DNA of 64,000 bases from Pachyseris speciosa (lineage: Eukaryota > Cnidaria > Anthozoa > Scleractinia > Pachyseridae). A program made the position numbers and the translations under genes. The notes beneath the pieces were generated by a model. That model was not told the origin of the DNA and searched no databases. It saw nothing but the letters and a program-made list of their open reading frames with translations. The stretch covers positions 1,800,001-1,864,000 of the forward strand of contig JAEMWC010000001.1 of the NCBI GenBank assembly GCA_016490735.1, in the 5' to 3' direction. Below are positions 47,663 through 64,000 of this stretch, piece by piece. Numbering within the stretch: position 1 is the stretch's first letter; every line of letters begins with the position of its first letter.

Positions 47663-50600
47663 TTAGTTTTTGGTTAGATAATGACCATATGCGTAACTGT
47701 TGATTCCGTCTTTTGAAATATATCTTTTGTCATCGAAACAGCTGAGTGATACTTTGTTTATTTCATAACTTCCTATTTGATGATTTTGACTTCTGATTGT
47801 TTTCATTTTGTGATGCAGCTGTTTATTATCGAATAGCGTCTCTTTATAATTTTCATGTTTGATACTCTTTTTGATTACAATCTTTTTTATTCCTTTGGCA
47901 GTCTTTCCTCCTTTTTGGTCGTCTTTCATATAGGAACACATCTTTGATCGCAAACCTACGAATTCAGTTATTGGTACACCTGCTGCTTCATCTTTCATTT
48001 TTCCAATCACTTTTTTATTTGACTTATTAAAATATGGTGAGCTTTCAGGGTAGTCACTGTTGTCAAATTTGTCTTTATCATTCCAGAAATCCCTATATAC
48101 ATCTTCAGCTTCAATTTCATAAGTTAAGCTGTCAGTATCAGTGAAGAGTAGTTTAGCTTTGCCACCATACTTTTGTTTAATGTAATTATAGTGAAAATCA
48201 TACATTAGTGTCTCACTGAGATCTAGAATACACATACCCACATATGCCGGCCTGTTTAAGGTAAGTGTTTCTTTGATCTTATGCACAGCAACTAGATTTT
48301 CATTTAATATCTTACTACTAACATAAGTGGGTTTACTAGCTAATTTTAACAGTTTCTTTTCATCAGTAACCAATCTGACATCTACTCTCTTTCTTAGATT
48401 CTCCATTGTTTTTCCAAAGACTGAATTATTCATTAGCTTGAGGAAGTCTTTCTCATAAGCATTTTTAGCATTGGTTCTTTTCTGAGTGTTGAAGTTAATG
48501 TACTGCCGGAGCCATGGGGATTGATTGTACTCTAGCACTCGATGGACTTTAGTTATTTTCAAACCAAGATCTGTGTATAATGGGAGGTTTCTATAATGGA
48601 CCACATACTTTTCTTTGTTGCTTAATGTTGGTATCAATTTGTGTACCAAACCAGTTGATATACTAAATTTATTAGCTATATTTTTGCAATAATCTGATAG
48701 CATATCCTTTGTCACTTTAATCTTTTCTGGTCCCAGTGGATAGTCATTATGAAGACTGTGCAACTCTTTGGGGTATTCCAAGTCAACTTCAAGTATCAAA
48801 CCTTTTTTACTGTCTTCTTTGTACATAGATAGGTCTAATTTGTTGATCTGTTCATTAGTCATCCATTTGAATCCACCTGTGGGTAAATATTGGCTCATAG
48901 CCCAACCGTATAAATTATTAGCATCTAGATACATGATGTACTTTGATGGCGCCTTCTCATTGTAATCTTTCATGTATTTATTGTTTGCTTTTCCATATCT
49001 GTTGGCTATATAGCTGATTCCACCACGCAACCCTTTTTCAATGAATTGAAACATATCAATTTCTGTCATCAATTCCAGTTTTATGTTAGTCATTTTTAAC
49101 ATTGCATCCCAAGATAGCCCTGGAGATGTGAAGTAGTGACACGGGTCCAGTTTGTAGTATTCTAAGCATGTTTTCCTGAAGTTTTCAAACACATCAGCTA
49201 GTAGAAGGATGTCTGATTTTAGGTACAGGTCATGATACTCACCCATATTTTTCAGAGAGAATTTATCCCAAATACTCTGAGCATGTGCATAGTCTTCATC
49301 TGATATATGTTCATTATTTAATACACTGTAAAAGTCTTCATTGGTTGGTATCTTTTCATTGAATTTATCAAAACTGTCCATATAGTCATAAGGGTAGACC
49401 CCTTTTTGTGCCATCAGATCAAGCTTTTCACCATTGAATACTTTTGAGGTATATTTCAAGGCTTCTTTTGGAAGATTACTGACTAGTTTTTCCAAACTAG
49501 AGCTCATGAATTGGAAACTATCAATAAATGTTAGGTGATTACCAAGCATGAAGGCCATGTATTTCTCCATGTTGTTGGGGATTGCATTGATTGTCATTTG
49601 ACAGTCTTCACCTTTCTTATTTTTGTAAGTATGCTTCTTGACAATGGATCCAATTTCTTGCATAATGAAATGGCTGTCATAACCTCTCAGATTGTGGAAT
49701 ATAACTGGTATTTTTATTTCTTCTGGATTTACTCTAAGTTTCAGGTTACATTCTTGATGAGCTGAGCCTCTTTATTTACCAGTGATGTGACAATGATCTC
49801 TAACTCTAATATCTTTGTCAGTGTATTTCTTATTGCAAATATGACAATCTTCAGCTTTTTGGAATTCTTCTTCATCATCTTTAGTCATTTTTAATGGTTT
49901 GTTGAATTCCTTTTTTATAATCTTCTTGCAATATTTAACTTCTTCTAACATTTTTTCCATGAATTTGTACACTGCCTTTTCACCTCTGTAAATTTGTGTT
50001 GGTTTTGTGTATTTGTCATCATAACAACAGACAACTTTATAACCATAACCACAGTCAGTATGCTTCTGATAAGCCTCAGTATATGATTTGTCATTATTTG
50101 GTTGACAACCCTGAATCTTTTCAGTAATGGCTTCAAAATGAGCATAAATCACAAATGGTATGGGTTGTTGTTTATGAAAGTTGTTGAATTTAAGAATGTT
50201 GTTATCCTTATTTGGCATTTTTATTGCTTGTGTTCCATTCACCTGAATACAATTGTCTTTGTGATCAGTTAATACTCTTTCTGAGCTGAAACACTGCAAA
50301 CAATGCATGCAGAAATGTTTTCTGTCCTTGTGTTTCGTCTGATTGAACATTAACTTATTAAAATCTTTGATTAACACATAATGCTTGTTTTCATCTTCAG
50401 TTATCAGTAGTAGATTCATACAGTCTTCATACTTTTCTTTTGAAACATAAATTGGATATGGTTGTTTATCTTCATAACCAAAAACATTGATATTGATCTT
50501 ATTTTGTTTTTCAATCTTGTTGTACTGTTTGGTGGTTACTGGGAATTCAATTCCTGAATAATCCAATTTTTCAATGTATTGTTTATCAACTTTTTTGATC

Positions 50601-51442
50601 CTCTGTGGGTATTTCTCTTGTGGGTTTAAGTGTCTGATATGACACCATCGGAAGCATTCATTATCCTCATTTTTCAAGTTAATTAAACCTTTAGCACTAT
50701 TACGCAATTCTGCTGGTAGTTTTATGTATGAGGAGCCTCTCATCGGTTCATATTTCACCACATTGAGGTAATGACTATCAACAGATTCGATTGTCCAACC
50801 AGACCCCTCAGAGACCCAAACTGCAATCTTATTTATTATTTGTTGTTTTGACTCTTGTAGTGATTCATTGATCTCTTGTTCATTCATGATTGTTTGAGCT
50901 GGACTATTGAAATATGCGGGTTTGTAAAATATTGCACCATCTGTTATCTTTGTGAATGTTACCTTTAATGTTTCAACAAATTTCAGTCCTTTCATTTCAT
51001 TCAGCAATTTTTTAATATGTGTTTCGATTGCTTTTCTTGTGTTTTGTAGTTGCTCAAGCGGGTCTTCATTATTTTTCACACCAATTTCAAAAGATTTAGT
51101 ATAACCCTTAAAAGCTTTCTCTGTTTGCTCTATCTTAGTCCTTGCTAATGGAACCGGTTTTTGAACTACCTTTTTGGTTCTAGGTGCTGGAACTGGTGTC
51201 TTTTTTAATTGTTCTATTTCTTCTAACCATTCAGAAGGTGGGGGTGGTAATCTTTTCCTCTCAAAATAATCAACCAATTCTTTCACAGTTTGTCTTGGTG
51301 CAGGTGCAGGTTTGGTATCATCTACCACTATAATCTTTGGCTTCTTGTTCTGTTGCTTCATTAGCAATTCAATTAATTGAGATTTACTCAGTTTTTCAAG
51401 ACTCTTCTTATCCATACTAATGGGGGAGATAATTTTTTCCAT
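47663..51442 (-). pseudogene. polB: Protein-primed family B DNA polymerase, one in-frame stop
   Basis: Replicates the linear element from its ends by protein priming. The frame of 1,259 codons is open except for TAA at 49772-49774. N-terminal part (before the stop): a Pro/Lys-rich tail region, a Cys/His cluster (HFCMHCLQCFSSERVLTDH), FVIYAHFEAI at the Exo I position, then CHICNKKYTD and RDHCHITGK. After the stop: YDSFDKFNEK; LDANNLYGWAMSQYLP (motif A region); KLMNNSVFGKTMENLR (motif B); LLFTDTDSLTYEIE (motif C, catalytic Asp pair). Exo I normally has Asp-x-Glu; here the Asp is His (codon CAT). The frame resumes without phase change after the stop. ACTATAG lies 16 nt before the ATG. Confidence 0.9.
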
Positions 51443-51805: not shown

Positions 51806-52567
51806 CTACTGTGTGTGCTGCATCCTTCGTGATAAATATAATTTGCTTTCTTCCATGTGCTTGGTTATTTCTTGAATCAAATCTTCAAAACAATTGCTCA
51901 TAATATATTTGCACTTATTTTTTTCATATAACTGTTTCATATTTGTTTGTTTATCCGACACCTGATACACACCTGCTGGACTTTTAAATTCAAGACACAA
52001 AGCATTGAATTTTCTAGTTGGATTCATTAACATCAAATCACATTGTCCAGACATATATCCTTTGTTGTAACTTTTGATTCTCATATTTGAGCTTATTTGA
52101 TTTTCACCAAGACCTGCTATCATTAATGCATCATCGTATTTTTTTCTGATAAATGAAACAATCTTGTAGTGCAAATCATTTTCATTTTCAATCAATAGCA
52201 TATTATTGTTTTTGTCATTGAACTTTTTGTAATATCCCTCTTTTCTGATTTTTGGTAAAACCTCTTTTGTTACCCATTGTCTGAATTCTTTTGCTTTATC
52301 CATATTAGATCTTAAAATAAGGCTATATACTCCAGATTCATTTATATAAATCACATGGTCATTTTTTGGGGGTAACGAATCGTTACACCTAGATTTGAGG
52401 TTATTTAGTGTAGTTTTATCTTCAGAATCAACATGATCAAGAATAGCTTTTCGAGTGTTCGCGTACTTTAAGATTCTAGCAACAGTCTTAGCTTTGAACC
52501 AAACATCATCACCATTATTGATAATATCTATTTCAGTTTCATCATAAATTAAAATTTCTTTTTTCAT
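51806..52567 (-). CDS. Bro-N domain protein with VRR-NUC-like C-terminus
   Basis: 253 residues. Residues 1-115 fit the Bro-N fold of large DNA viruses and phages: DDVWFKAKTVARILKYANTR, LDHVDSEDK, VIYINESGVYSLILRS and EFRQWVTKEVLPKIRKEGYY. Residues 130-235 look like a VRR-NUC/PD-(D/E)XK nuclease: KGYMSGQCDLMLMNP (Asp177) and ALCLEFKSPAG (Glu193-x-Lys195), with YQVSDKQTNMKQLYEKNKC after it. Bro-N binds DNA; VRR-NUC proteins cut branched or free DNA ends. A role in replication or resolution of element DNA, or against host DNA, is possible. The frame is intact and the ATG follows a TATAG-containing upstream region. Confidence 0.75.
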   Translation of the reverse strand: MKKEILIYDETEIDIINNGDDVWFKAKTVARILKYANTRKAILDHVDSEDKTTLNNLKSRCNDSLPPKNDHVIYINESGVYSLILRSNMDKAKEFRQWVTKEVLPKIRKEGYYKKFNDKNNNMLLIENENDLHYKIVSFIRKKYDDALMIAGLGENQISSNMRIKSYNKGYMSGQCDLMLMNPTRKFNALCLEFKSPAGVYQVSDKQTNMKQLYEKNKCKYIMSNCFEDLIQEITKHMEESKLYLSRRMQHTQ

Positions 52568-52712: not shown

Positions 52713-53668
52713 TCATATATCTTTTAAATCCTTGATGGGTATCCAACTGTTGAAGTCGTCACTATATCCCTTCCACTTTACTAAAGCTTGTTTCTTCTTG
52801 TAATCCCTCCGAACGACCTTATCAATTCTGAATACCTCTTGTTTGGCTTTTAATAATTCAGGTTCATAAAAACTCCCTTCAATATCTTCACCTCTAAGAT
52901 CCTTTATTTTGTATGTTATTGGATTAGTGTATTGGATTTTATCTATTGTGAATAATTCTTCAGTCCAGTTTGGAGTATAACCCTTGTCAAAAGTCTTTCT
53001 TTTGTATTTACTAATTCGAACCTTGTCACCAACTTTAAGTTTTGGTTTCTGTTTTAATGTTTCTATATCACCATACAAATTGAAGTAAACAGTTCCTTTA
53101 TTCTTTTTCTTTGAAGCCTCTGTGGGTGTCATCTTTGTACTTGAATGTTTTGTGTTATTGTACTGTTTTAATATTTTAGGTAATATGTCTATGTACTGTG
53201 TATTACCTTGAACTGTGAACTGTTTCCACATTTTGGACTTCATTGTTCGATTCCATCTTTCAACCACTGAGGACTTTTCTTCATTCTCGGTGGAGTACAT
53301 GTGTATCTCATTTTTCTCTAGCAAGTCCTTCAAGTGTTTGTTGTAAAACTCTTTACCTTTATCGACCCATAGAAATTGTGGTTTTCTATCTCTGAAGATG
53401 GTTTGGAATGCTTCAGTTACAGTTTCACCCTTTTTATCCTTGAGAGGAACAATCCAACCATATTTACTGAAAACATCAATAACCATCAAAAGATATTTAT
53501 AACCTTTATTCCATTTGCTGAATTTTTGCATTTCAACAAGATCAGCAGCCCATATTTCATCAATTTTATTTACAATCACACGCCGTCGAGTAAAATTGCG
53601 TTTTATGGGTGTATGTAACTCATCTGCTAATTTTTCTTGCCAGTTTTCTTCACTCGACGGCTTTTTCC
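52713..53668 (-). CDS. int: Retroviral-type integrase with chromodomain, no own ATG
   Basis: Inserts element DNA into the chromosome. The N-terminal ADELHTPIKRNFTRRRVIV leads into the rve core: IWAADLVEMQKFSKW (first Asp), LWVDKGKEFYNKHL (second Asp) and EEKSSVVERWNRTMK (Glu). The C-terminus carries LKVGDKVRISKYKR (SH3-like) and a chromodomain (FRIDKVVRRDYKKKQALVKW, GYSDDFNSWIP). The conserved start lies upstream of the first possible start codons: the frame is open from 53717 with no ATG before the rve domain, and a GTG at 53579 would drop the ELHTP region. The frame overlaps the end of the PLA2 gene in -1 phase at a slippery heptamer (53669-53675). Expression as a PLA2-integrase fusion is therefore likely. 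Confidence 0.88.
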
Positions 53669-53675
53669 GTTTTTT
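53582..53675 (-). promoter_or_regulatory. Candidate -1 ribosomal frameshift site
   Basis: Read on the minus strand, the heptamer A_AAA_AAC (53675-53669) lies in the PLA2 frame. Then a 7-nt spacer GGAAAAA (53668-53662) and a stem GCCGTCGAGT (53661-53652) pairing perfectly with ACTCGACGGC (53591-53582). Four further inner pairs include two G-U. The loop is 52 nt. A -1 slip moves ribosomes from the PLA2 gene into the integrase frame. The geometry matches retroviral-type signals. A one-base deletion in the A6 run is the alternative. Confidence 0.6.
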
Positions 53676-54904
53676 GGAACACCTAAACCTAGTTTCTCCT
53701 TTTTGTTGATTAGGAATCTAGCTGTTTGACCCCATTTTGGCATTTCACCATACGGTATTTGATCGAGAGATTTTATCATTGTTCTATCACAATCACCTTT
53801 ATCTTTTCCCATATCATAACAAATATCGTGGTAAGCTGCTATTTCATCCACCTTGTTGTAAGGTTGGACATTCCACTTCAGAACCTCACCTGTGTTTTTA
53901 TCATATTCCAACTGCTCATTAAGAGGATTGTAGGGTCCCATGTATTTATACTTTCCTGGTGTCCATCCAGCTTTTGGTTTTGGAAGCTTCCCAATAACTT
54001 TATGAATATCAATCTTTCCACCATAATAATTATTGGCAGTATCAGCAATTATTTGTCCATAAGAAGTCCAACCTTTGTTATTTTTTCCCTTAATAGCTTT
54101 CCCAAAAGCACTCATAAATTTAGGATTGGTAAAAGTTTTAGGAATAAGAACACCATATTTAAGCATACTAGTGTCAAAAACCTTATCACCCCAACCAGAT
54201 CCGAATTTTATTGGAATTGTGAATGTTGGTTTAGACCCAAAACCAGATTCAAGTATGAACTTATTATAGCTTCCCTTGTAACCATTAGCTTTTGCAGTTT
54301 CATATAATTTCTTATAAACCTTGACTCTTTCCTTAGCATCTTTAATTTCACTGGGATTTGGAAATTTAAAAAGATTTGGGTCTGTTGCTAATTCTGCTGC
54401 TTTTTTAAAATCAACTTGCCATGGGCTTCCTGCGACTCCACTCTTTAATAGCTTGTCAACATCAATAGCACCACCATGTGTATAATCCAATCCTTTGATG
54501 TCTGTTTTGTAACGAATGTTTGGTCGCACTTTTGTTGAGAGTTGATTTAAAGCTTCTGTCCCAACCTTTTGTAAAATGGGAGTTGCTTTTTTTATGCCAT
54601 AGTCAATCGCACGCCGCTGAAGTTTTGGATTTCTCATTGCTTCAGAAGCATAATATCTCCCCATTTCAACACCCTTCTTCGCTAAATAAGGGACTCCATG
54701 TTCCAAGAATCCTGTTAGCGCCATATCTGCGGCTGAATCTAGTATGCCAGCTCCTTGCTTACTAACAAATTTAGTTTTTGTGATTCCACACTCAGCACAA
54801 GTGCATTTCATCATAGTTTGACCATTTTCAGTCTTTTGATATCTTTCACTTCCCGGTACACATTCTGTTACTTTCTTCTGTTTTACACAGTATGATTTCA
54901 CCAT
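53627..54904 (-). CDS. Virion protein with phospholipase-A2-like domain
   Basis: 425 residues from the ATG at 54904, chosen because it follows the late motif (54905-54923) and because a paralogue starts the same way. N-terminus: YCVKQKKVTECVPGSERYQK and MKCTCAECGITKTKF, a Cys-rich ribbon. The middle is a long region with basic and Gly-rich stretches. C-terminus (about 320-385): YMGPYNPLNEQLEYD, NKVDEIAAYHDICYDMG (His359-Asp360) and DCDRTMIKSL. These match the YxGPxN loop and HD catalytic pair of the parvovirus VP1-type PLA2, which opens endosomal membranes during entry. The 3' end overlaps the integrase frame. PLA2 presence fits adintovirus-like particles. Confidence 0.8.
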   Translation of the reverse strand: MVKSYCVKQKKVTECVPGSERYQKTENGQTMMKCTCAECGITKTKFVSKQGAGILDSAADMALTGFLEHGVPYLAKKGVEMGRYYASEAMRNPKLQRRAIDYGIKKATPILQKVGTEALNQLSTKVRPNIRYKTDIKGLDYTHGGAIDVDKLLKSGVAGSPWQVDFKKAAELATDPNLFKFPNPSEIKDAKERVKVYKKLYETAKANGYKGSYNKFILESGFGSKPTFTIPIKFGSGWGDKVFDTSMLKYGVLIPKTFTNPKFMSAFGKAIKGKNNKGWTSYGQIIADTANNYYGGKIDIHKVIGKLPKPKAGWTPGKYKYMGPYNPLNEQLEYDKNTGEVLKWNVQPYNKVDEIAAYHDICYDMGKDKGDCDRTMIKSLDQIPYGEMPKWGQTARFLINKKEKLGLGVPKNGKSRRVKKTGKKN

Positions 54905-54929: not shown

Positions 54930-55265
54930 TTATTTTCCACCTCTATAATGTTTAATGTTGTCTGTTACACCCTTGACTGCCTGACCTGCAAGTATCTTTG
55001 CCAAACCAGCAAAACTAGGAGCTGGAGTCACAAAATTAGACATTATATATGCAGCTTTATCAACGGCTGAAGGACCTCTATTTTGAATTCTTCTGATGGT
55101 TGATCTTGAAGCCCCACCTGTTTGTTTGACGAATTTAGTCTTTGTGATTCCACACTCAGCACATGTGCATTTCATCATAGTTCGACCATTTTTGGTTTTT
55201 TGATATCTTTCACTTCCCGGTACACACTCAGTGACCTTCTTCTGTTTAACGCAGTATGATCTCAT
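54930..55265 (-). CDS. Short paralogue of the PLA2 protein N-terminus
   Basis: 111 residues from the ATG at 55265 (an upstream-open frame exists, but this ATG follows the late motif at exact spacing). The first 46 residues nearly repeat the PLA2 protein: YCVKQKKVTECVPGSERYQK and MKCTCAECGITKTKF. Then comes TGGASRSTIRRIQNRGPSAV and a hydrophobic helix region, ending in RGGK. It has no PLA2 domain. The shared Cys-rich head suggests both bind the same virion partner. It ends 25 nt before the start codon of the PLA2 gene. Confidence 0.72.
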   Translation of the reverse strand: MRSYCVKQKKVTECVPGSERYQKTKNGRTMMKCTCAECGITKTKFVKQTGGASRSTIRRIQNRGPSAVDKAAYIMSNFVTPAPSFAGLAKILAGQAVKGVTDNIKHYRGGK

Positions 55266-55281
55266 ATACAAATGGGTTAGA
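55266..55281 (-). promoter_or_regulatory. Late-type motif of the short paralogue
   Basis: TCTAACCCATTTGTAT then ATG; TCTAA begins 16 nt before the ATG. The TAA of the motif is also the stop codon of the upstream protease gene. Confidence 0.65.
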
Positions 55282-56638
55282 TATTTTCGAAATAGTTTAT
55301 GATGAATCTGTGATTGACACTCACATCTGTTGGACTGAATTTGGAATTGTGTATAGTATCCAGAATTGATGTACCATTTTGTCTCTCCAGAAGATAGTAC
55401 AAACACCAATATCCACACAATACTGAATCCCTTTCTTGTATCTCATCACCAGAGTATTCAAGTTGTTTCCCACTTGTGGCCATATATATTTGAACTTCTG
55501 TCGGCATCATCAATCCGAATGAATCGAAGTATTCACAGTATGTGTCCATATTCCGATAACATACCCAATGAATACCTGGTCCAATCTGACTGTCAAGATT
55601 GACTATTCCACATTCTTTGTTTTTTATTTGTTTTGGAAGATTGTCCCGACTGAATACTCCTCTGAAATGTTTTATTCCAAGTTGTTTCACCCATTTCAAT
55701 AAATCATAGTTGGATAATGGTTTATTCACGAATCTTACAGTATTTCTCCAAGTATGGGGATTGATTTGAAGGGACTGTTTTTTCCCAGTAGAAGCCCTTT
55801 TCCTTTGGTCTTTTTTTTTCATTCCATAACCAATTGGGTTATCCCACGTACCAAAAACTGGGGGTGATCTCCATGGAAACACATCATATTTTCCACCACT
55901 TTTAGGATCTGGAACATACACAGGCAATGACCGTGTTGGACGACTGCGTCCGACTTGTAAACCAGTTCCATCACTTTTTGTCATAATTGAATCCGGAACA
56001 TGGACAGGTATTGATCGTGTTGGACGACTGCGTTCGACTTGTAAACCCTTCCCTGATAATTTTTTAACTGCTTCTATGGCTAGAGGAATTCCAATAGTTG
56101 CCATTATTGTTCCAAGACCTTTTCCATTTTGGGTTTTTGTTGGTTTGATAACAACGTCTCCACCATACTGCATTTTTTGAATAAGATCAGCCATTTGTCT
56201 TGTATTCAACAAATTTTTTACATTCAATAGCTGGGACAAGTTTTGATTAGGAATGATAAATCCTCCTTTTTGTTTCTTTCTAAACATTTTATCAATAGCC
56301 ATACTCCCAAGAGATGAAAGAGCACCTGTAGCTAATGCTGGAGCTGCTTTAGATGCTGCTTTAATTGCAAACGGCAAAAGACTTGACCAAAGAGAACCTC
56401 CATGCACAACAGCTTTTCTGATTTGTGATTTTGATATTTTGTTGTCTGAACCTTTTCCTGATCTTTTTGATTTCATCAGTTTGTTGATTTGTGTCTTAGT
56501 CAACATCAGTTCATCATTTCCAGACAATTCACTATGCGATAACCTTATTGTTACAGCTGAATTTGTTCTGTAAGCTTTTGCAAGCTTTTCTTTCTGACCC
56601 TGTGAAAGTTTCACTCCATGAGGATGATAAGTAGTCAT
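55277..56638 (-). CDS. Core-like protein fused to adenain-type protease
   Basis: 453 residues. N-terminal half (1-250): TTYHPHGVKLSQGQKEKLAKAYR, Lys/Ser-rich stretches, GGSLWSSLLPFAIKAASKAAP and several GG sites, resembling adenovirus core/pX- and pVI-type proteins. A duplicated 20-residue unit lies at 197-216 and 225-244 (RSRPTRS(I/L)PV). C-terminal half: adenain-type cysteine protease, with His357 in GIHWVCY, Asp372 in EYFDSFG, Gln401 and Cys408 in VLCGYWCLYYLL. The protease matures capsid proteins in Polintons and adenoviruses. Usually core and protease are separate genes; here one intact frame covers both. Confidence 0.82.
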   Translation of the reverse strand: MTTYHPHGVKLSQGQKEKLAKAYRTNSAVTIRLSHSELSGNDELMLTKTQINKLMKSKRSGKGSDNKISKSQIRKAVVHGGSLWSSLLPFAIKAASKAAPALATGALSSLGSMAIDKMFRKKQKGGFIIPNQNLSQLLNVKNLLNTRQMADLIQKMQYGGDVVIKPTKTQNGKGLGTIMATIGIPLAIEAVKKLSGKGLQVERSRPTRSIPVHVPDSIMTKSDGTGLQVGRSRPTRSLPVYVPDPKSGGKYDVFPWRSPPVFGTWDNPIGYGMKKKDQRKRASTGKKQSLQINPHTWRNTVRFVNKPLSNYDLLKWVKQLGIKHFRGVFSRDNLPKQIKNKECGIVNLDSQIGPGIHWVCYRNMDTYCEYFDSFGLMMPTEVQIYMATSGKQLEYSGDEIQERDSVLCGYWCLYYLLERQNGTSILDTIHNSKFSPTDVSVNHRFIINYFENI

Positions 56639-59977: not shown

Positions 59978-60619
59978 ATGGAAATTCCAAATTATGACAT
60001 CATTCAGGATTCAAACAAGTCTTTTAGACAGTTGTATCCGTATATGCCGAAAGATACATTCAGAATGTTATTGGCTGGAAATTCAGGATCCGGAAAGACA
60101 ACACTGTTTCTGCACTTGATTATGGAACCGTTAGTCTATTATGATCAGATCCATCTCTACGCCAAAAACTTGGATCAAGATAAATATCAATATTTACAGC
60201 AAGTGATGGATAGAATAAGCAAACAAGTTGGTTACCCCGTTTTAATTTGTAGCCAAGATGAAATTTTACCTGTTGAACAAATTCAAGACACTGAATTGCA
60301 GCGGTTGGTTGTGTTTGATGATTTTGTGACGGATAAAAAACAAGATCAAATCATCAGCTATTTTATACAAGGTCGCCACAAAAATTGTTCAGTAGTGTAC
60401 CTAACACAGTCATTCTATGGATGTCCAAAATCTGTTAGGCTTAATTGTAGCCACTTCTGCCTTTATGATTTTCCATCTGCAAGAGAAAGAAACTTTATTG
60501 CCAAAGAACTTGCAATTGATGAGAAGAAGTATATCGAAGCAACTAAAAAACCATATTCTTTCTGTTATATTGACAAACCAATGAAAACTGTGAAGAGAAA
60601 CTTTTATGGAGTTATCTAA
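59978..60619 (+). CDS. Genome-packaging ATPase (FtsK/HerA type)
   Basis: 213 residues, intact. Walker A GNSGSGKTT at 34-42, Walker B RLVVFDDFVTD around 109-119 with the acidic pair Asp114-Asp115, and a sensor-like VVYLTQSFYG near 145-155. The size and motif order fit the A32-like packaging ATPases of Polintons, virophages and adenovirus-like elements, which pump DNA into the preformed capsid. It is the first gene of the plus-strand block and is followed after 11 nt by the fibre gene. Confidence 0.88.
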   Translation: MEIPNYDIIQDSNKSFRQLYPYMPKDTFRMLLAGNSGSGKTTLFLHLIMEPLVYYDQIHLYAKNLDQDKYQYLQQVMDRISKQVGYPVLICSQDEILPVEQIQDTELQRLVVFDDFVTDKKQDQIISYFIQGRHKNCSVVYLTQSFYGCPKSVRLNCSHFCLYDFPSARERNFIAKELAIDEKKYIEATKKPYSFCYIDKPMKTVKRNFYGVI

Positions 60620-60630: not shown

Positions 60631-63051
60631 ATGGGAATATTCAATTTTTTACCACATCAATATGATACAACTGGTGGTCAAGGTACAAGAGGTCCAGTTG
60701 GTCCAAAAGGTGATAAAGGTGATAAAGGTCCAAAAGGTGATAAAGGTAATAAAGGTGATAGAGGTCTAACTGGTCCAGTTGGTCCAAAAGGTGATAAAGG
60801 TGATAGAGGTCTAACTGGTCCAAAAGGTGACACAGGTCTAATTGGTATAAAAGGTGATAGAGGTCTAACTGGTCCAAAAGGTGATAAAGGTGATAGAGGT
60901 CTAACTGGTCCAAAAGGTGATAAAGGTGATAAAGGTGATAAAGGTGACAAAGGTGATAATGGATTCAAATTGACACAAGATGGGAAATATGATATCGAAA
61001 ACAAAAAGTTGACTAATTTAGCAATACCTACAAATTTAAAAGATAGTGCAAACAAATCATATGTTGATAATCTTGTTTTTTCAGCATCAGGTTCTCAACG
61101 TAACCCATTCGCTTTTCTGTTAAAAGACAAATCTAAGTCTTCTGGAGTCCAAGGTGTGGAAAACCTTCAAATTGAGAATTTTGACAAATCACCTTATCAC
61201 ATAAACAAGTCATCATTGTCTTTTTTCATTAAAAGAAGTGGCAACTTTACATCCAAAATTCGTTTTGATGTTTCATCTTTGAGTAAGGGTGAGTATACTT
61301 TTGTGGTCGAGTTTTTCTCACCATCAAACCCTCAAAATGCAACAATCGGATTATTCCTTCCGACTGTAAACATGCGCGACGCGGGACAGCAGTTTTAAAA
61401 ACCTTTTCCTAAAACTCCACACGTTGATGGTTACATGAAGAAGCTTTTTACAATTCAAAAAACAAGTGGTGGTCAAGCGGCAATACAGGTTGATCTAAGT
61501 AGCACAGCTCCAGTGTCTAACACCAAAACACATCTCATTGTTTATGGAGCCTTTGGATATCATACAAATTTGTCTTACTTTGTGCACGACCCAGCGTATG
61601 AAATTGAAAACGGCAATGTTGCGTTTGGTGGTAATATTGACATGAAATTAAACAAAATCCTCAACCTGCAGGATAACCCCTCAAACCCACAAGATGCTGT
61701 GAACAAAAGTTATGTCGATACACAAGTTGCTAGCATTGATGTTTCATAATTTGTTAAAAAAGATGGAAGTGTTGCAATGTCTGGAGATTTGGACATGGGT
61801 GGAAATAATGTGATAAATATAGCAGATGTGGTGAATGAGGGCGATGCGGTGAATTTCAGAGTTTTGAATCGTGCTTCTCAAACCATTCGAGCGGCAACCT
61901 TATTATTGAATGGAACAAATGCGATGATGGCGGATATGAAACTTGGAGGGTATAAAATCATTGACTGTGCAACACCAACAGAAAATTCTGATACTGCAAC
62001 AAAGGGGTATGTTGACTCAACTCACGTTGAAGCTTCAGGGACAGGTAAGCAAGAAAACCCTTTTAAATACCTCATGGAAGACGTTAACGAATCTTCTTCT
62101 GAAAATAACATAACTGTGCTTAGTATTACTAGCTATTCAACATCACCTCACCAAATAAACAGAAACGCGTATAATTTTACACTCATTGATGATAAAGATG
62201 GAACTGAACAGTATCGCTCCAGAATTGGTTTCAACCTTTTCAGACTTCCAATAGGTTTTTATACCCTTGTTGTTGAGTTTTTCCCTCCGGAAATGCGAAA
62301 TGTTAGTGTTCATGCTACTGCCGACTCGCTATCATTTGGTGCACAAACCTCGAAAACATTCCAAGCAACGGCAACCATTGCTGCATATGTCAAAACAATA
62401 CTGCACTTCGAAAAAACACAGACAGGTCAACGAGAATATATCTACCTTGATCTACATGGAAAAACCGCGTTTCCCAACCCCACTGGGCACATGGTTGTTT
62501 ATGGTGTAAATGGCACTGTTGCAAAAGTTCCATCCACTGTGTTTGATCAGATCTTCTTCGTCAATAATGGGAAAATGCAAATGGAAACCGATTTGGATTT
62601 AAATAATTACGGGGTTTACAATAACAATGTAGCTTTATACAATTACTTAAATGGGGCTGTCAGATTTTCAAAACCTTTAATTTTACCAGGGTTAGTTTAT
62701 AAAATAGCAAGTTCTTTGTTAACCGGCTCTTCCGCATCAGAAGATGTTTTTTCTATACCAACGTTTTGGGCTCCATATACACCGTTTTTTAAAGAATTGA
62801 TTCGCACCGATTTACATTTTTATGACCGCACTTCCATGCCACAAAATGGTTCTTTTCGTGTTTATGTTACCGTTGGAGGAAAAGAACAACGGCTTACATC
62901 TCACAATATTTCCAAAGGGGAAACTGGCTGGGTAGTTTTCTCAAACATTAGGACACACTTGTATTTTCCAACAGCTACTGCATTAACGTTTAAAATTACC
63001 GGACTTAACCAGAGAACAAGAGTAACGCTTACTGCTGAGTTTCTTGCATAA
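60631..63051 (+). pseudogene. Collagen-like fibre protein 1, two in-frame stops
   Basis: One phase of 807 codons interrupted by TAA at 61396-61398 and 61747-61749; coding continues in frame after both. Residues 1-14 are a tail starting MGIFNFLPHQ. Residues 15-110 are about 31 uninterrupted Gly-X-Y triplets (GPKGDKGD, GDRGLTGP), a collagen triple helix. Then come repeated modules: KLTNL...DSANKSYVDN, a domain with YTFVVEFFSPSN, phage-fibre-like repeats (MSGDLDMGGNNVINIAD, GGYKIIDCATPTENSDTATK) and a second copy of the domain (FYTLVVEFFPPE). The C-terminal head has FRVYVTVGGKEQRLTSH. The product would be a trimeric attachment fibre on the penton. The stops suggest decay of this copy. Confidence 0.72.
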
Positions 63052-63131: not shown

Positions 63132-64000
63132 ATGGGTATATTCAATTTTACACCAAATCAAAATAGTATAAGAAATGGTAAAACAGGTCCAAAAGGTGAT
63201 AAAGGTGATAATGGAAATGGATTTAAAATGACACAAGATGGGCATTATGATCTTGAAAACAAACTTTTAACTAATGTAAAACCTGGCAATGATGTCAATC
63301 ATGTCGTTATCAAATCACAAGTTTCTGATATTGTCAGAGATAGTTTTTTAGATTTATGGGTTTCTGAATTTATCAGATTATACTCAAAATGTGTTTATCA
63401 AATCGATAGAGCGAATAATAATTTTTTAGATATGAATGCAAATAGAAAAGTTGAAACATTATACGATCTCTCAAATGAAGAAAATAATGCAACTCAATCA
63501 ACTTCAAATATAAGACCCACAGTTTGTACCAAGGCTGAGAAACATAATGGGCGTTATTTTTTAAAGTTTAATGGATCACAGAGAATGATAAGTCAAATTA
63601 ATTTAAATAATAATGCTGTTAATATTTTCATTGTTTACAAATTAAATTCAAATACAGGTGGAAATCCATGGAAAAATGGGTTTTTGGTCATGACGATGGA
63701 GGTTATGATAAGTTTGTCAGCTATTACAATGGTTCAAATTTAGCAATAAGTGGTGTTGATCAATCAAATTGTGTATATTTTGGCCCAGCAGCATCTATAC
63801 AAAATTTCACAAAATTAGCAGATTATTCCGTAAATAATTTAGGTCAAATCAATGTTTGGCACTGTTTATCTGTTCATTGGGATAATTTATCTTCTCCAAA
63901 TACGGATAAAAGTAAAATCTATTGGAACAAAAAACATATGGGAAGTTTTGCATCTGCTAATAGAACCGGTAGTCAACAAATGACTTTTGGTGATTTAAAC
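63132..64000 (+). pseudogene. Collagen-like fibre protein 2 with lectin-like domain, partial
   Basis: The start repeats that of fibre 1 (MGIFNFTPNQ), followed by a short collagen stretch (GPKGDKGDNGNG) and KMTQDGHYDLENKLLTNV, also shared. The rest differs: EFIRLYSKCVYQIDRANNNF, RYFLKFNGSQRMISQINLNN and NIFIVYKLNSNTGG look like a concanavalin/LamG-type beta sandwich. The frame changes by -1 near 63672-63685 (short A, G and T runs). The second frame (HDDGGYDKFVSYYNGSNLAI, NVWHCLSVHWDNLS, KIYWNKKHMGSF) runs to the window edge. The gene is cut by the window. A carbohydrate-binding alternative fibre is likely. Confidence 0.65.

What the first reader, a model, noticed from the sequence alone, without database searches (positions are those of the whole stretch)
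53582..53717. Polinton integrase reached by -1 frameshift from the PLA2 virion gene
Seen: the integrase frame has no ATG upstream of its conserved ADELHTP start; it overlaps the PLA2 gene in -1 phase; the overlap holds an in-frame A_AAA_AAC heptamer, a 7-nt spacer and a 10-bp perfect GC-rich stem in AT-rich DNA. Known: this is the layout of retroviral and coronaviral -1 signals. Inference: a minor PLA2-integrase fusion would carry integrase into the particle, as gag-pol does in retroviruses. I know of no described case in Polintons. The caveat is that other A-runs in this window show -1 breaks without a stem. Even if the A6 run is under-called, integrase would still be made fused to PLA2.
Basis: partly seen in the sequence, partly recalled or inferred. 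Interest (0 to 1): 0.88.

Follow-up and report, generated by a model that had tools for sequence, protein, structure and literature searches.

The report
Transposon integrase made by ribosomal slip
In a virus-like mobile element whose junction signal occurs more than 1,300 times in this genome, the enzyme that inserts the element lacks a usable start codon and is predicted to be made by ribosomes slipping back one letter at the end of the neighbouring phospholipase-domain gene, which would yield a fused protein much as retroviruses do.

Summary
On the minus strand, A_AAA_AAC (53669-53675) lies in the PLA2 frame. A 7-nt spacer and a 13-pair hairpin (one G-U) follow. The integrase frame is -1 to it and has no ATG before its core. 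Other copies answer the raw-read worry: all 127 places scored in an integrase search of the host genome were read, and 116 keep the -1 phase with the heptamer in register. Four are in one frame, each by a different lesion. The exact 30-nt signal occurs 1336 times with A6, 15 with A7 and 9 with A5. In 81 distinct junctions that carry the unit, the heptamer has no variant, and the 3' arm changes mostly by pair-keeping substitutions. Of 162 PLA2 relatives (database) that keep the C-terminal linker, 143 end in peptides compatible with A_AAA_AAY or U_UUA_AAY. Programmed -1 frameshifting is therefore the best explanation; no experiment was possible. Delivery of integrase inside particles remains inference. 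Against: 35 of 120 listed database integrase clusters (3.3% of members) have PLA2 in the same protein. I found no earlier description among the papers listed; the main adintovirus paper is not held.

The parts
53627..54904 (-). PLA2-domain gene (0 frame), from the ATG at 54902-54904 (my choice of start; the frame is open to 54964) to the TAG at 53627-53629
53759..53968 (-). Phospholip_A2_4 domain (PF08398)
   Evidence: E 1.1e-07, 32.5 bits against a cut-off of 23.9
53669..53675 (-). slippery heptamer A_AAA_AAC in the PLA2 frame
   Evidence: in register in 147 of 161 copies with -1 phase
53662..53668 (-). 7-nt spacer
53649..53661 (-). 5' arm of the 13-pair stem
53595..53648 (-). 54-nt loop; synonymously free beyond the overlap
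53582..53594 (-). 3' arm of the stem
   Evidence: pairs kept in most copies
53627..53717 (-). stretch in which both the PLA2 frame and the integrase frame are open
52713..53669 (-). integrase as read in the -1 frame after the slip: 318 codons and the TGA
53295..53561 (-). rve integrase core (PF00665)
   Evidence: E 2.6e-10
52719..52829 (-). chromodomain (PF00385)
   Evidence: E 2.6e-08
53550..53579 (-). single-coded stretch past the stem with few synonymous changes (0.014 per site)

Best explanation
The PLA2/integrase junction of this Polinton is predicted to be a programmed -1 ribosomal frameshift site at which some ribosomes would slip on A_AAA_AAC, before a 13-pair hairpin 7 nt downstream, and read on into the integrase frame. 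Shown: the frames, the heptamer, the spacer, the complementary arms, and their retention in more than a hundred copies. Inferred: the hairpin forms in the RNA; most ribosomes stop at the PLA2 stop codon and make PLA2 alone, while a minority make a PLA2-integrase fusion. This would be the main source of integrase that keeps its first catalytic Asp, because the first Met of the integrase frame lies after that residue. The fusion linker also stands where distant Polinton integrases have their own N-terminal part and ATG. Untested: the PLA2 part may carry integrase into particles, as Gag does in Gag-Pol.
For: Anatomy. All 41 junction-spanning copies of the DNA search keep A_AAA_AAC in register and -1 phase. 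Of the 127 copies of the integrase search 116 do. Exact 30-nt signal: A6 1336, A7 15, A5 9. The 30-nt bin from the heptamer on has 0.9% mismatch; 63 of 136 indels elsewhere are not multiples of three, while the overlap has one 3-nt deletion. Synonymous change is near zero over the overlap and high in the loop. Stem pairs are kept in most copies by wobble changes, and the stem exceeds a protein-preserving null. In database relatives the PLA2 C-terminus keeps xKN (123 of 162) or GLNxxRR (20 of 162), and 85 of the 123 stop exactly four residues after KN. Integrase M41 follows the invariant D37. Four of four distant integrases have an N-terminal extension with an ATG.
Against: No translation data. 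35 of 120 listed integrase clusters in the databases contain PLA2 in the same protein, one with 98 members, and 7 of 161 host copies read are in one frame, three of these picked for their long frame. No two-sided covariation; the 5' arm is fixed by dual coding, which alone explains much of its conservation. The heptamer types of other families are inferred from peptides only. Copies share descent, so counts are not independent. In a 141-nt piece the folding energy is not unusual (z -1.64). Low synonymous change also extends past the stem, which the model does not explain.
Confidence: 0.85

Rival explanations
1. Decay or sequence error: the working element has one continuous PLA2-integrase frame, and the -1 phase is a lesion or an under-called A-run.
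For: One-frame proteins exist in databases: 35 of 120 listed clusters, one with 98 members. Copies in this genome carry other lesions, and the window's PolB-like frame has an in-frame stop.
Against: 116 of 127 copies are -1 at the same place, and the 4 one-frame copies have four different lesions. A6 1336 against A7 15 and A5 9. The PLA2 stop and C-terminus recur in other genomes.
Confidence: 0.03
2. Internal initiation: integrase starts on its own AUG or a near-AUG codon inside the PLA2 gene.
For: A -1-frame ATG in AAAATGGGG is open into integrase in 12 of 161 copies. Database integrases beginning MG.. or MD.. in this stretch include clusters of 164 and 75 members.
Against: In the window that ATG meets a stop after five codons. 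147 of 161 copies have no Met before the core in the sequence read (the 241-base stretches reach only about 66 nt upstream of the heptamer). It does not explain the heptamer, spacer and stem.
Confidence: 0.05
3. Splicing joins the PLA2 frame, or another upstream exon, to the integrase frame.
For: Two coral gene models skip the junction residues, as if an intron had been predicted there.
Against: The two models leave out different stretches, so they give no common splice site. Splicing does not need an in-register heptamer or a stem. No RNA was available to test it.
Confidence: 0.04
4. Transcriptional slippage: RNA polymerase adds one A in the A6 run, and the altered RNA encodes the fusion.
For: The site is a homopolymer run and an added A would give the same fusion.
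Against: Relatives with GLNxxRR ends (20 of 162) keep a stop at the same distance apparently without an A-run (peptide inference). The stem is not needed for this. A6 is short for slippage by the nuclear polymerase (recalled).
Confidence: 0.03

Closest known systems
Retroviral gag-pro / gag-pol -1 frameshift sites (A_AAA_AAC class; recalled)
   Same: In-register heptamer, short spacer, downstream stem, enzyme in the -1 frame after a structural gene
   Different: Here a DNA element with no reverse transcriptase found by the family searches run on its genes, and the upstream gene is a phospholipase-domain protein, not Gag
IS3-family transposase OrfAB frameshift (recalled)
   Same: A DDE transposase of related fold made by -1 slip; the window integrase matches NF033516 IS3 below its cut-off
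   Different: Bacterial, A_AAA_AAG, and the upstream frame is part of the transposase, not a phospholipase
Possible -1 slippery site in adintovirus Penton genes (PMC11071296, passages)
   Same: A predicted -1 slip near the 3' end of a virion gene in related viruses
   Different: Another gene; it gives an alternate Penton C-terminus, not integrase
Insect Maverick CAP (PLA2) and INT genes (PMC5803895, passages)
   Same: A PLA2-domain capsid-like protein and an integrase with a chromodomain in one element
   Different: Described there as separate ORFs; no frameshift in the passages seen

Membership tests
Programmed -1 ribosomal frameshift sites | Heptamer X_XXY_YYZ in the 0 frame | tested here: met
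   A_AAA_AAC at 53669-53675
Programmed -1 ribosomal frameshift sites | Downstream RNA structure after a spacer of about 5-9 nt | tested here: met
   Predicted only: 13-pair stem after 7 nt; no pseudoknot found
Programmed -1 ribosomal frameshift sites | Long conserved frame in -1 phase overlapping the upstream gene | tested here: met
   318 codons; -1 in 150 of 161 copies, 147 with the exact heptamer in register
Programmed -1 ribosomal frameshift sites | Measured -1 product | not testable with these tools
   No reporter, ribosome profile or proteomic data
Polinton/Maverick elements | rve integrase (here with chromodomain) | tested here: met
Polinton/Maverick elements | Packaging ATPase | tested here: met
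   Pox_A32, E 2.5e-17, at 59978-60619
Polinton/Maverick elements | Double jelly-roll major capsid protein | tested here: inconclusive
   PF21738 23.5 bits, below its cut-off of 27
[quoted passage not shown]
   No PolB family hit for 47663-49663 or 49772-51442; called PolB-like from recalled motifs only
Polinton/Maverick elements | Adenovirus-type cysteine protease | tested here: inconclusive
   Peptidase_C5 E 0.1 within 55277-56638
Polinton/Maverick elements | Terminal inverted repeats | not tested
   Element ends were not sought
Gag-Pol-like enzyme packaging | Enzyme fused to a structural protein by a -1 frameshift | tested here: inconclusive
   Signal present and conserved; that PLA2 is structural is inferred
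Gag-Pol-like enzyme packaging | Fusion found in particles | not testable with these tools
   No particle data

The most novel reading that the evidence does not exclude
A lineage of animal Polintons packages its integrase as retroviruses do: a -1 frameshift hangs the integrase on a minor virion phospholipase at a fixed low ratio, so that the enzyme enters the new cell with the genome. The slip signal has been kept through exchange between two heptamer types (A_AAA_AAC and U_UUA_AAC).
Probability: 0.45. Interest if true: 0.9.

Novelty: new variant of a known kind. Interest (0 to 1): 0.82.

Why it matters
Whether Polintons form infectious particles, and how their integrase would reach the genome of a new cell, is an open question. 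A conserved translational coupling of integrase to a phospholipase-domain gene would favour a virion route and gives a short, portable signal that can be tested in a reporter. It would extend the Gag-Pol logic to a DNA element and may explain why two coral gene models misjoin these genes.

Tried and rejected
Collections without relatives: viral contigs by protein, by two alignments and by two DNA patterns gave nothing related (one search gave four chance matches, read). The first genome-contig scan gave none; phages and plasmids gave none. The second genome-contig scan gave four distant Polinton-type contigs in prokaryote MAGs, used only for the independent N-terminus. A pseudoknot was sought: no second helix was kept in all 108 ungapped copies; the best was a 5-pair one kept in 104, and the longest, of 8 pairs, was kept in 68. 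The P0230 query was meant to find another integrase clade in the host genome, but the hits listed were again at 69-74%, much of them the window's clade (125 scored of 4530 candidates, 4 of 125 with long frames). Arginine codons in the stem are all CGN (5 of 5) against 41% CGN in four genes together: too weak to use.

Full report
OBSERVATION. The two frames were read directly. On the minus strand the PLA2 frame ends ...VPKNGKSRRVKKTGKKN-stop (TAG 53627-53629). The integrase frame is open from 53717 down to its TGA at 52713-52715 and lies in -1 phase. AAAAAAC at 53669-53675 is in the register A_AAA_AAC; the spacer is GGAAAAA; the arms are 53649-53661 and 53582-53594. The hairpin has 13 pairs, one of them G-U, and a 54-nt loop. 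Alone it folds at -21.2 kcal/mol, z -4.61; in a 102-nt piece z is -2.99, in a 141-nt piece only -1.64. AAAAAAC as such is as common as chance predicts, so position and conservation carry the weight. Keeping the integrase protein and the overlap fixed and drawing synonymous codons from the element's usage, a stem of 13 or more pairs arose in 10 of 5000 draws and the energy was matched in 4 of 1500.

WHAT THE GENES ARE. The upstream protein has a Phospholip_A2_4 domain (E 1.1e-07), the downstream one an rve core and a chromodomain; the core matches PFV integrase chains. Neighbours include an A32-type ATPase, a weak double jelly-roll match below its cut-off and a BRO-N gene. Calling the element a Polinton follows from these; no polymerase family was hit. 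Calling the PLA2 protein a virion component is inference from the parvovirus VP1-type domain and from published insect Mavericks (PMC5803895, passages). Four of four distant integrases (38-47% identical) have a longer N-terminal part with an ATG. In the window the integrase begins, in effect, at the block that follows that part, and its first Met (M41) follows the invariant D37; that D37 is the first catalytic residue is recalled knowledge.

OTHER COPIES IN THE HOST GENOME. The window lies in a 984-Mb assembly. A DNA search gave 74 matches, of which 41 including the window span the junction; the 40 others were fetched. All 41 have A6C in register, -1 phase and nearly the same PLA2 C-terminus; 39 of 41 have no Met in the integrase frame before the core. 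An integrase search scored 127 of 4809 first-look candidates. All 127 were read: the window, 24 already among the 40, and 102 fetched as 241-base stretches. By, 116 of 127 are -1 with the heptamer in register, 3 are -1 without the exact heptamer, 4 are in one frame and 4 are +1. With 16 further copies and 18 (three of these picked because their frame was long) the total is 161: 147 canonical, 3 -1 without the exact heptamer, 7 in one frame, 4 +1. The one-frame copies show different lesions: run expansion (L057), one extra base in the spacer (L058, L157, L158), A7 (L060, L159) and a deletion (L061). A second PLA2 subtype in the same genome reads CAA AAA AAC and so keeps the heptamer with another preceding codon.

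WHOLE-GENOME COUNT. The exact 30-nt string YC-A6-CGGAAAAAGCCGTCGAGTGAAG occurs 1336 times (695 + 641), with A7 15 times and with A5 9 times; the reversed controls are 0. This disposes of a mis-called run. It is not by itself proof of selection after insertion: copies share descent, and indels in a short stretch of young copies are few anyway.

SELECTION. Across 40 copies the 30-nt bin that starts at the heptamer has 0.9% mismatch to the window; other bins have 1-39%, and two bins just past the stem (+90 to +149) are as low, at 1.0% each. Outside the overlap there are 136 indels, 63 of them not multiples of three; inside (-60 to +80) there is one 3-nt deletion. Synonymous change per site is 0.008 and 0.000 in the two PLA2-frame bins from the heptamer to near the stop, 0.37 in the loop bin, 0.15 in the bin that holds the 3' arm and 0.014 at +96..+125, which is coded once only. 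Among 108 ungapped copies that carry the unit (81 distinct) the heptamer has no variant, and the spacer and 5' arm vary in 0-4% of rows per site; this set was selected by the unit, so the exceptions above are the fair denominator. In the stem, 132 of 147 canonical copies keep all 13 pairs, 12 keep 12 and 3 were not matched by the script; the commonest changes are U-A to U-G (85 of 144) and G-U to G-C (61 of 144). These are one-sided; no two-sided change that keeps pairing was found.

OTHER GENOMES. Two protein searches with PLA2 queries (909 and 1443 hits, 120 listed each) gave 204 distinct PLA2 proteins. 42 lack the C-terminal linker. Of the 162 that keep it, 123 have xKN with x = Q, T, S, P, A, L or K, all residues that can have A-ending codons (the script asked for this, but none of the 12 left over has another residue before KN); 20 end GLNxxRR; 12 are other; 7 run into integrase in the same frame. 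In 85 of 123 the stop comes exactly four residues after KN, in 23 thirteen residues after it, as in the window. xKN fits A_AAA_AAY and GLN fits U_UUA_AAY, but these are peptide inferences: no DNA of those families could be fetched. Against: in the integrase search (7464 hits, 120 listed) 35 of 120 clusters contain PLA2 in the same protein, 216 of 6510 member sequences, including a cluster of 98; longer fusions would fall outside that search's length limit. So one-frame versions exist and may work in some lineages. Coral names among the hits (Stylophora pistillata P0020; Oculina patagonica P0195; Porites lobata P0244) hint that the host is a cnidarian (inference); the models P0195 and P0244 skip the junction.

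ALTERNATIVES. Internal start: a -1-frame ATG in AAAATGGGG meets a stop after five codons in the window and is open in 12 of 161 copies; the database list also holds integrases that begin MG.. or MD.. there, in clusters of up to 164. Splicing and transcriptional slippage cannot be excluded without RNA, but neither explains heptamer, spacer and stem together.

MECHANISM. Most likely, ribosomes translating PLA2 meet the hairpin while their tRNAs sit on A_AAA_AAC; a minority re-pair one base back and continue for 318 codons through integrase (frames shown; slip inferred). The ratio is unknown. An integrase fused to a minor particle protein would reach a new cell with the DNA; this last step is untested.

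LITERATURE. Six searches of the PMC library (20, 20, 10, 20, 15 and 15 rows listed) showed no title or abstract start about a PLA2-integrase frameshift. PMC11071296 (passages) suggests a -1 slippery site in some adintovirus Penton genes. PMC5803895, PMC8363768, PMC12567637 and PMC8097293 mention none for this junction in the passages seen. The main adintovirus paper (PMC8502044) is not held, so an earlier mention there cannot be excluded.

Noticed in passing
49772-49774 (-): An in-frame TAA interrupts the PolB-like frame, so this copy is probably not fully intact.
   Followed up: no
54930-55418 (-): The neighbouring ORF repeats the Cys-rich N-terminus of the PLA2 protein; window 55129-55264 matches query bases 41-176 at 90%.
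   Followed up: no
53550-53579 (-): Synonymous changes are rare just past the stem, where only one frame is coded; unexplained.
   Followed up: partly
60631-61398 and 63132-63743 (+): ORFs whose N-termini hold GPKGDKG-type collagen-like repeats.
   Followed up: no
51806-52567 (-): A BRO-N domain gene lies between integrase and the PolB-like frame.
   Followed up: no
P0195 (Oculina patagonica), P0244 (Porites lobata): Annotated coral proteins leave out the junction residues, as if an intron had been predicted across the frameshift.
   Followed up: partly
P0137 and related database clusters: Clusters with PLA2 and integrase in one protein, one with 98 members: possibly a lineage that has lost the frameshift.
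   Followed up: partly
L001-L004: Polinton-type contigs sit in GTDB bacterial MAGs (Nomurabacteria, Ignavibacteria), probably eukaryotic contamination.
   Followed up: no
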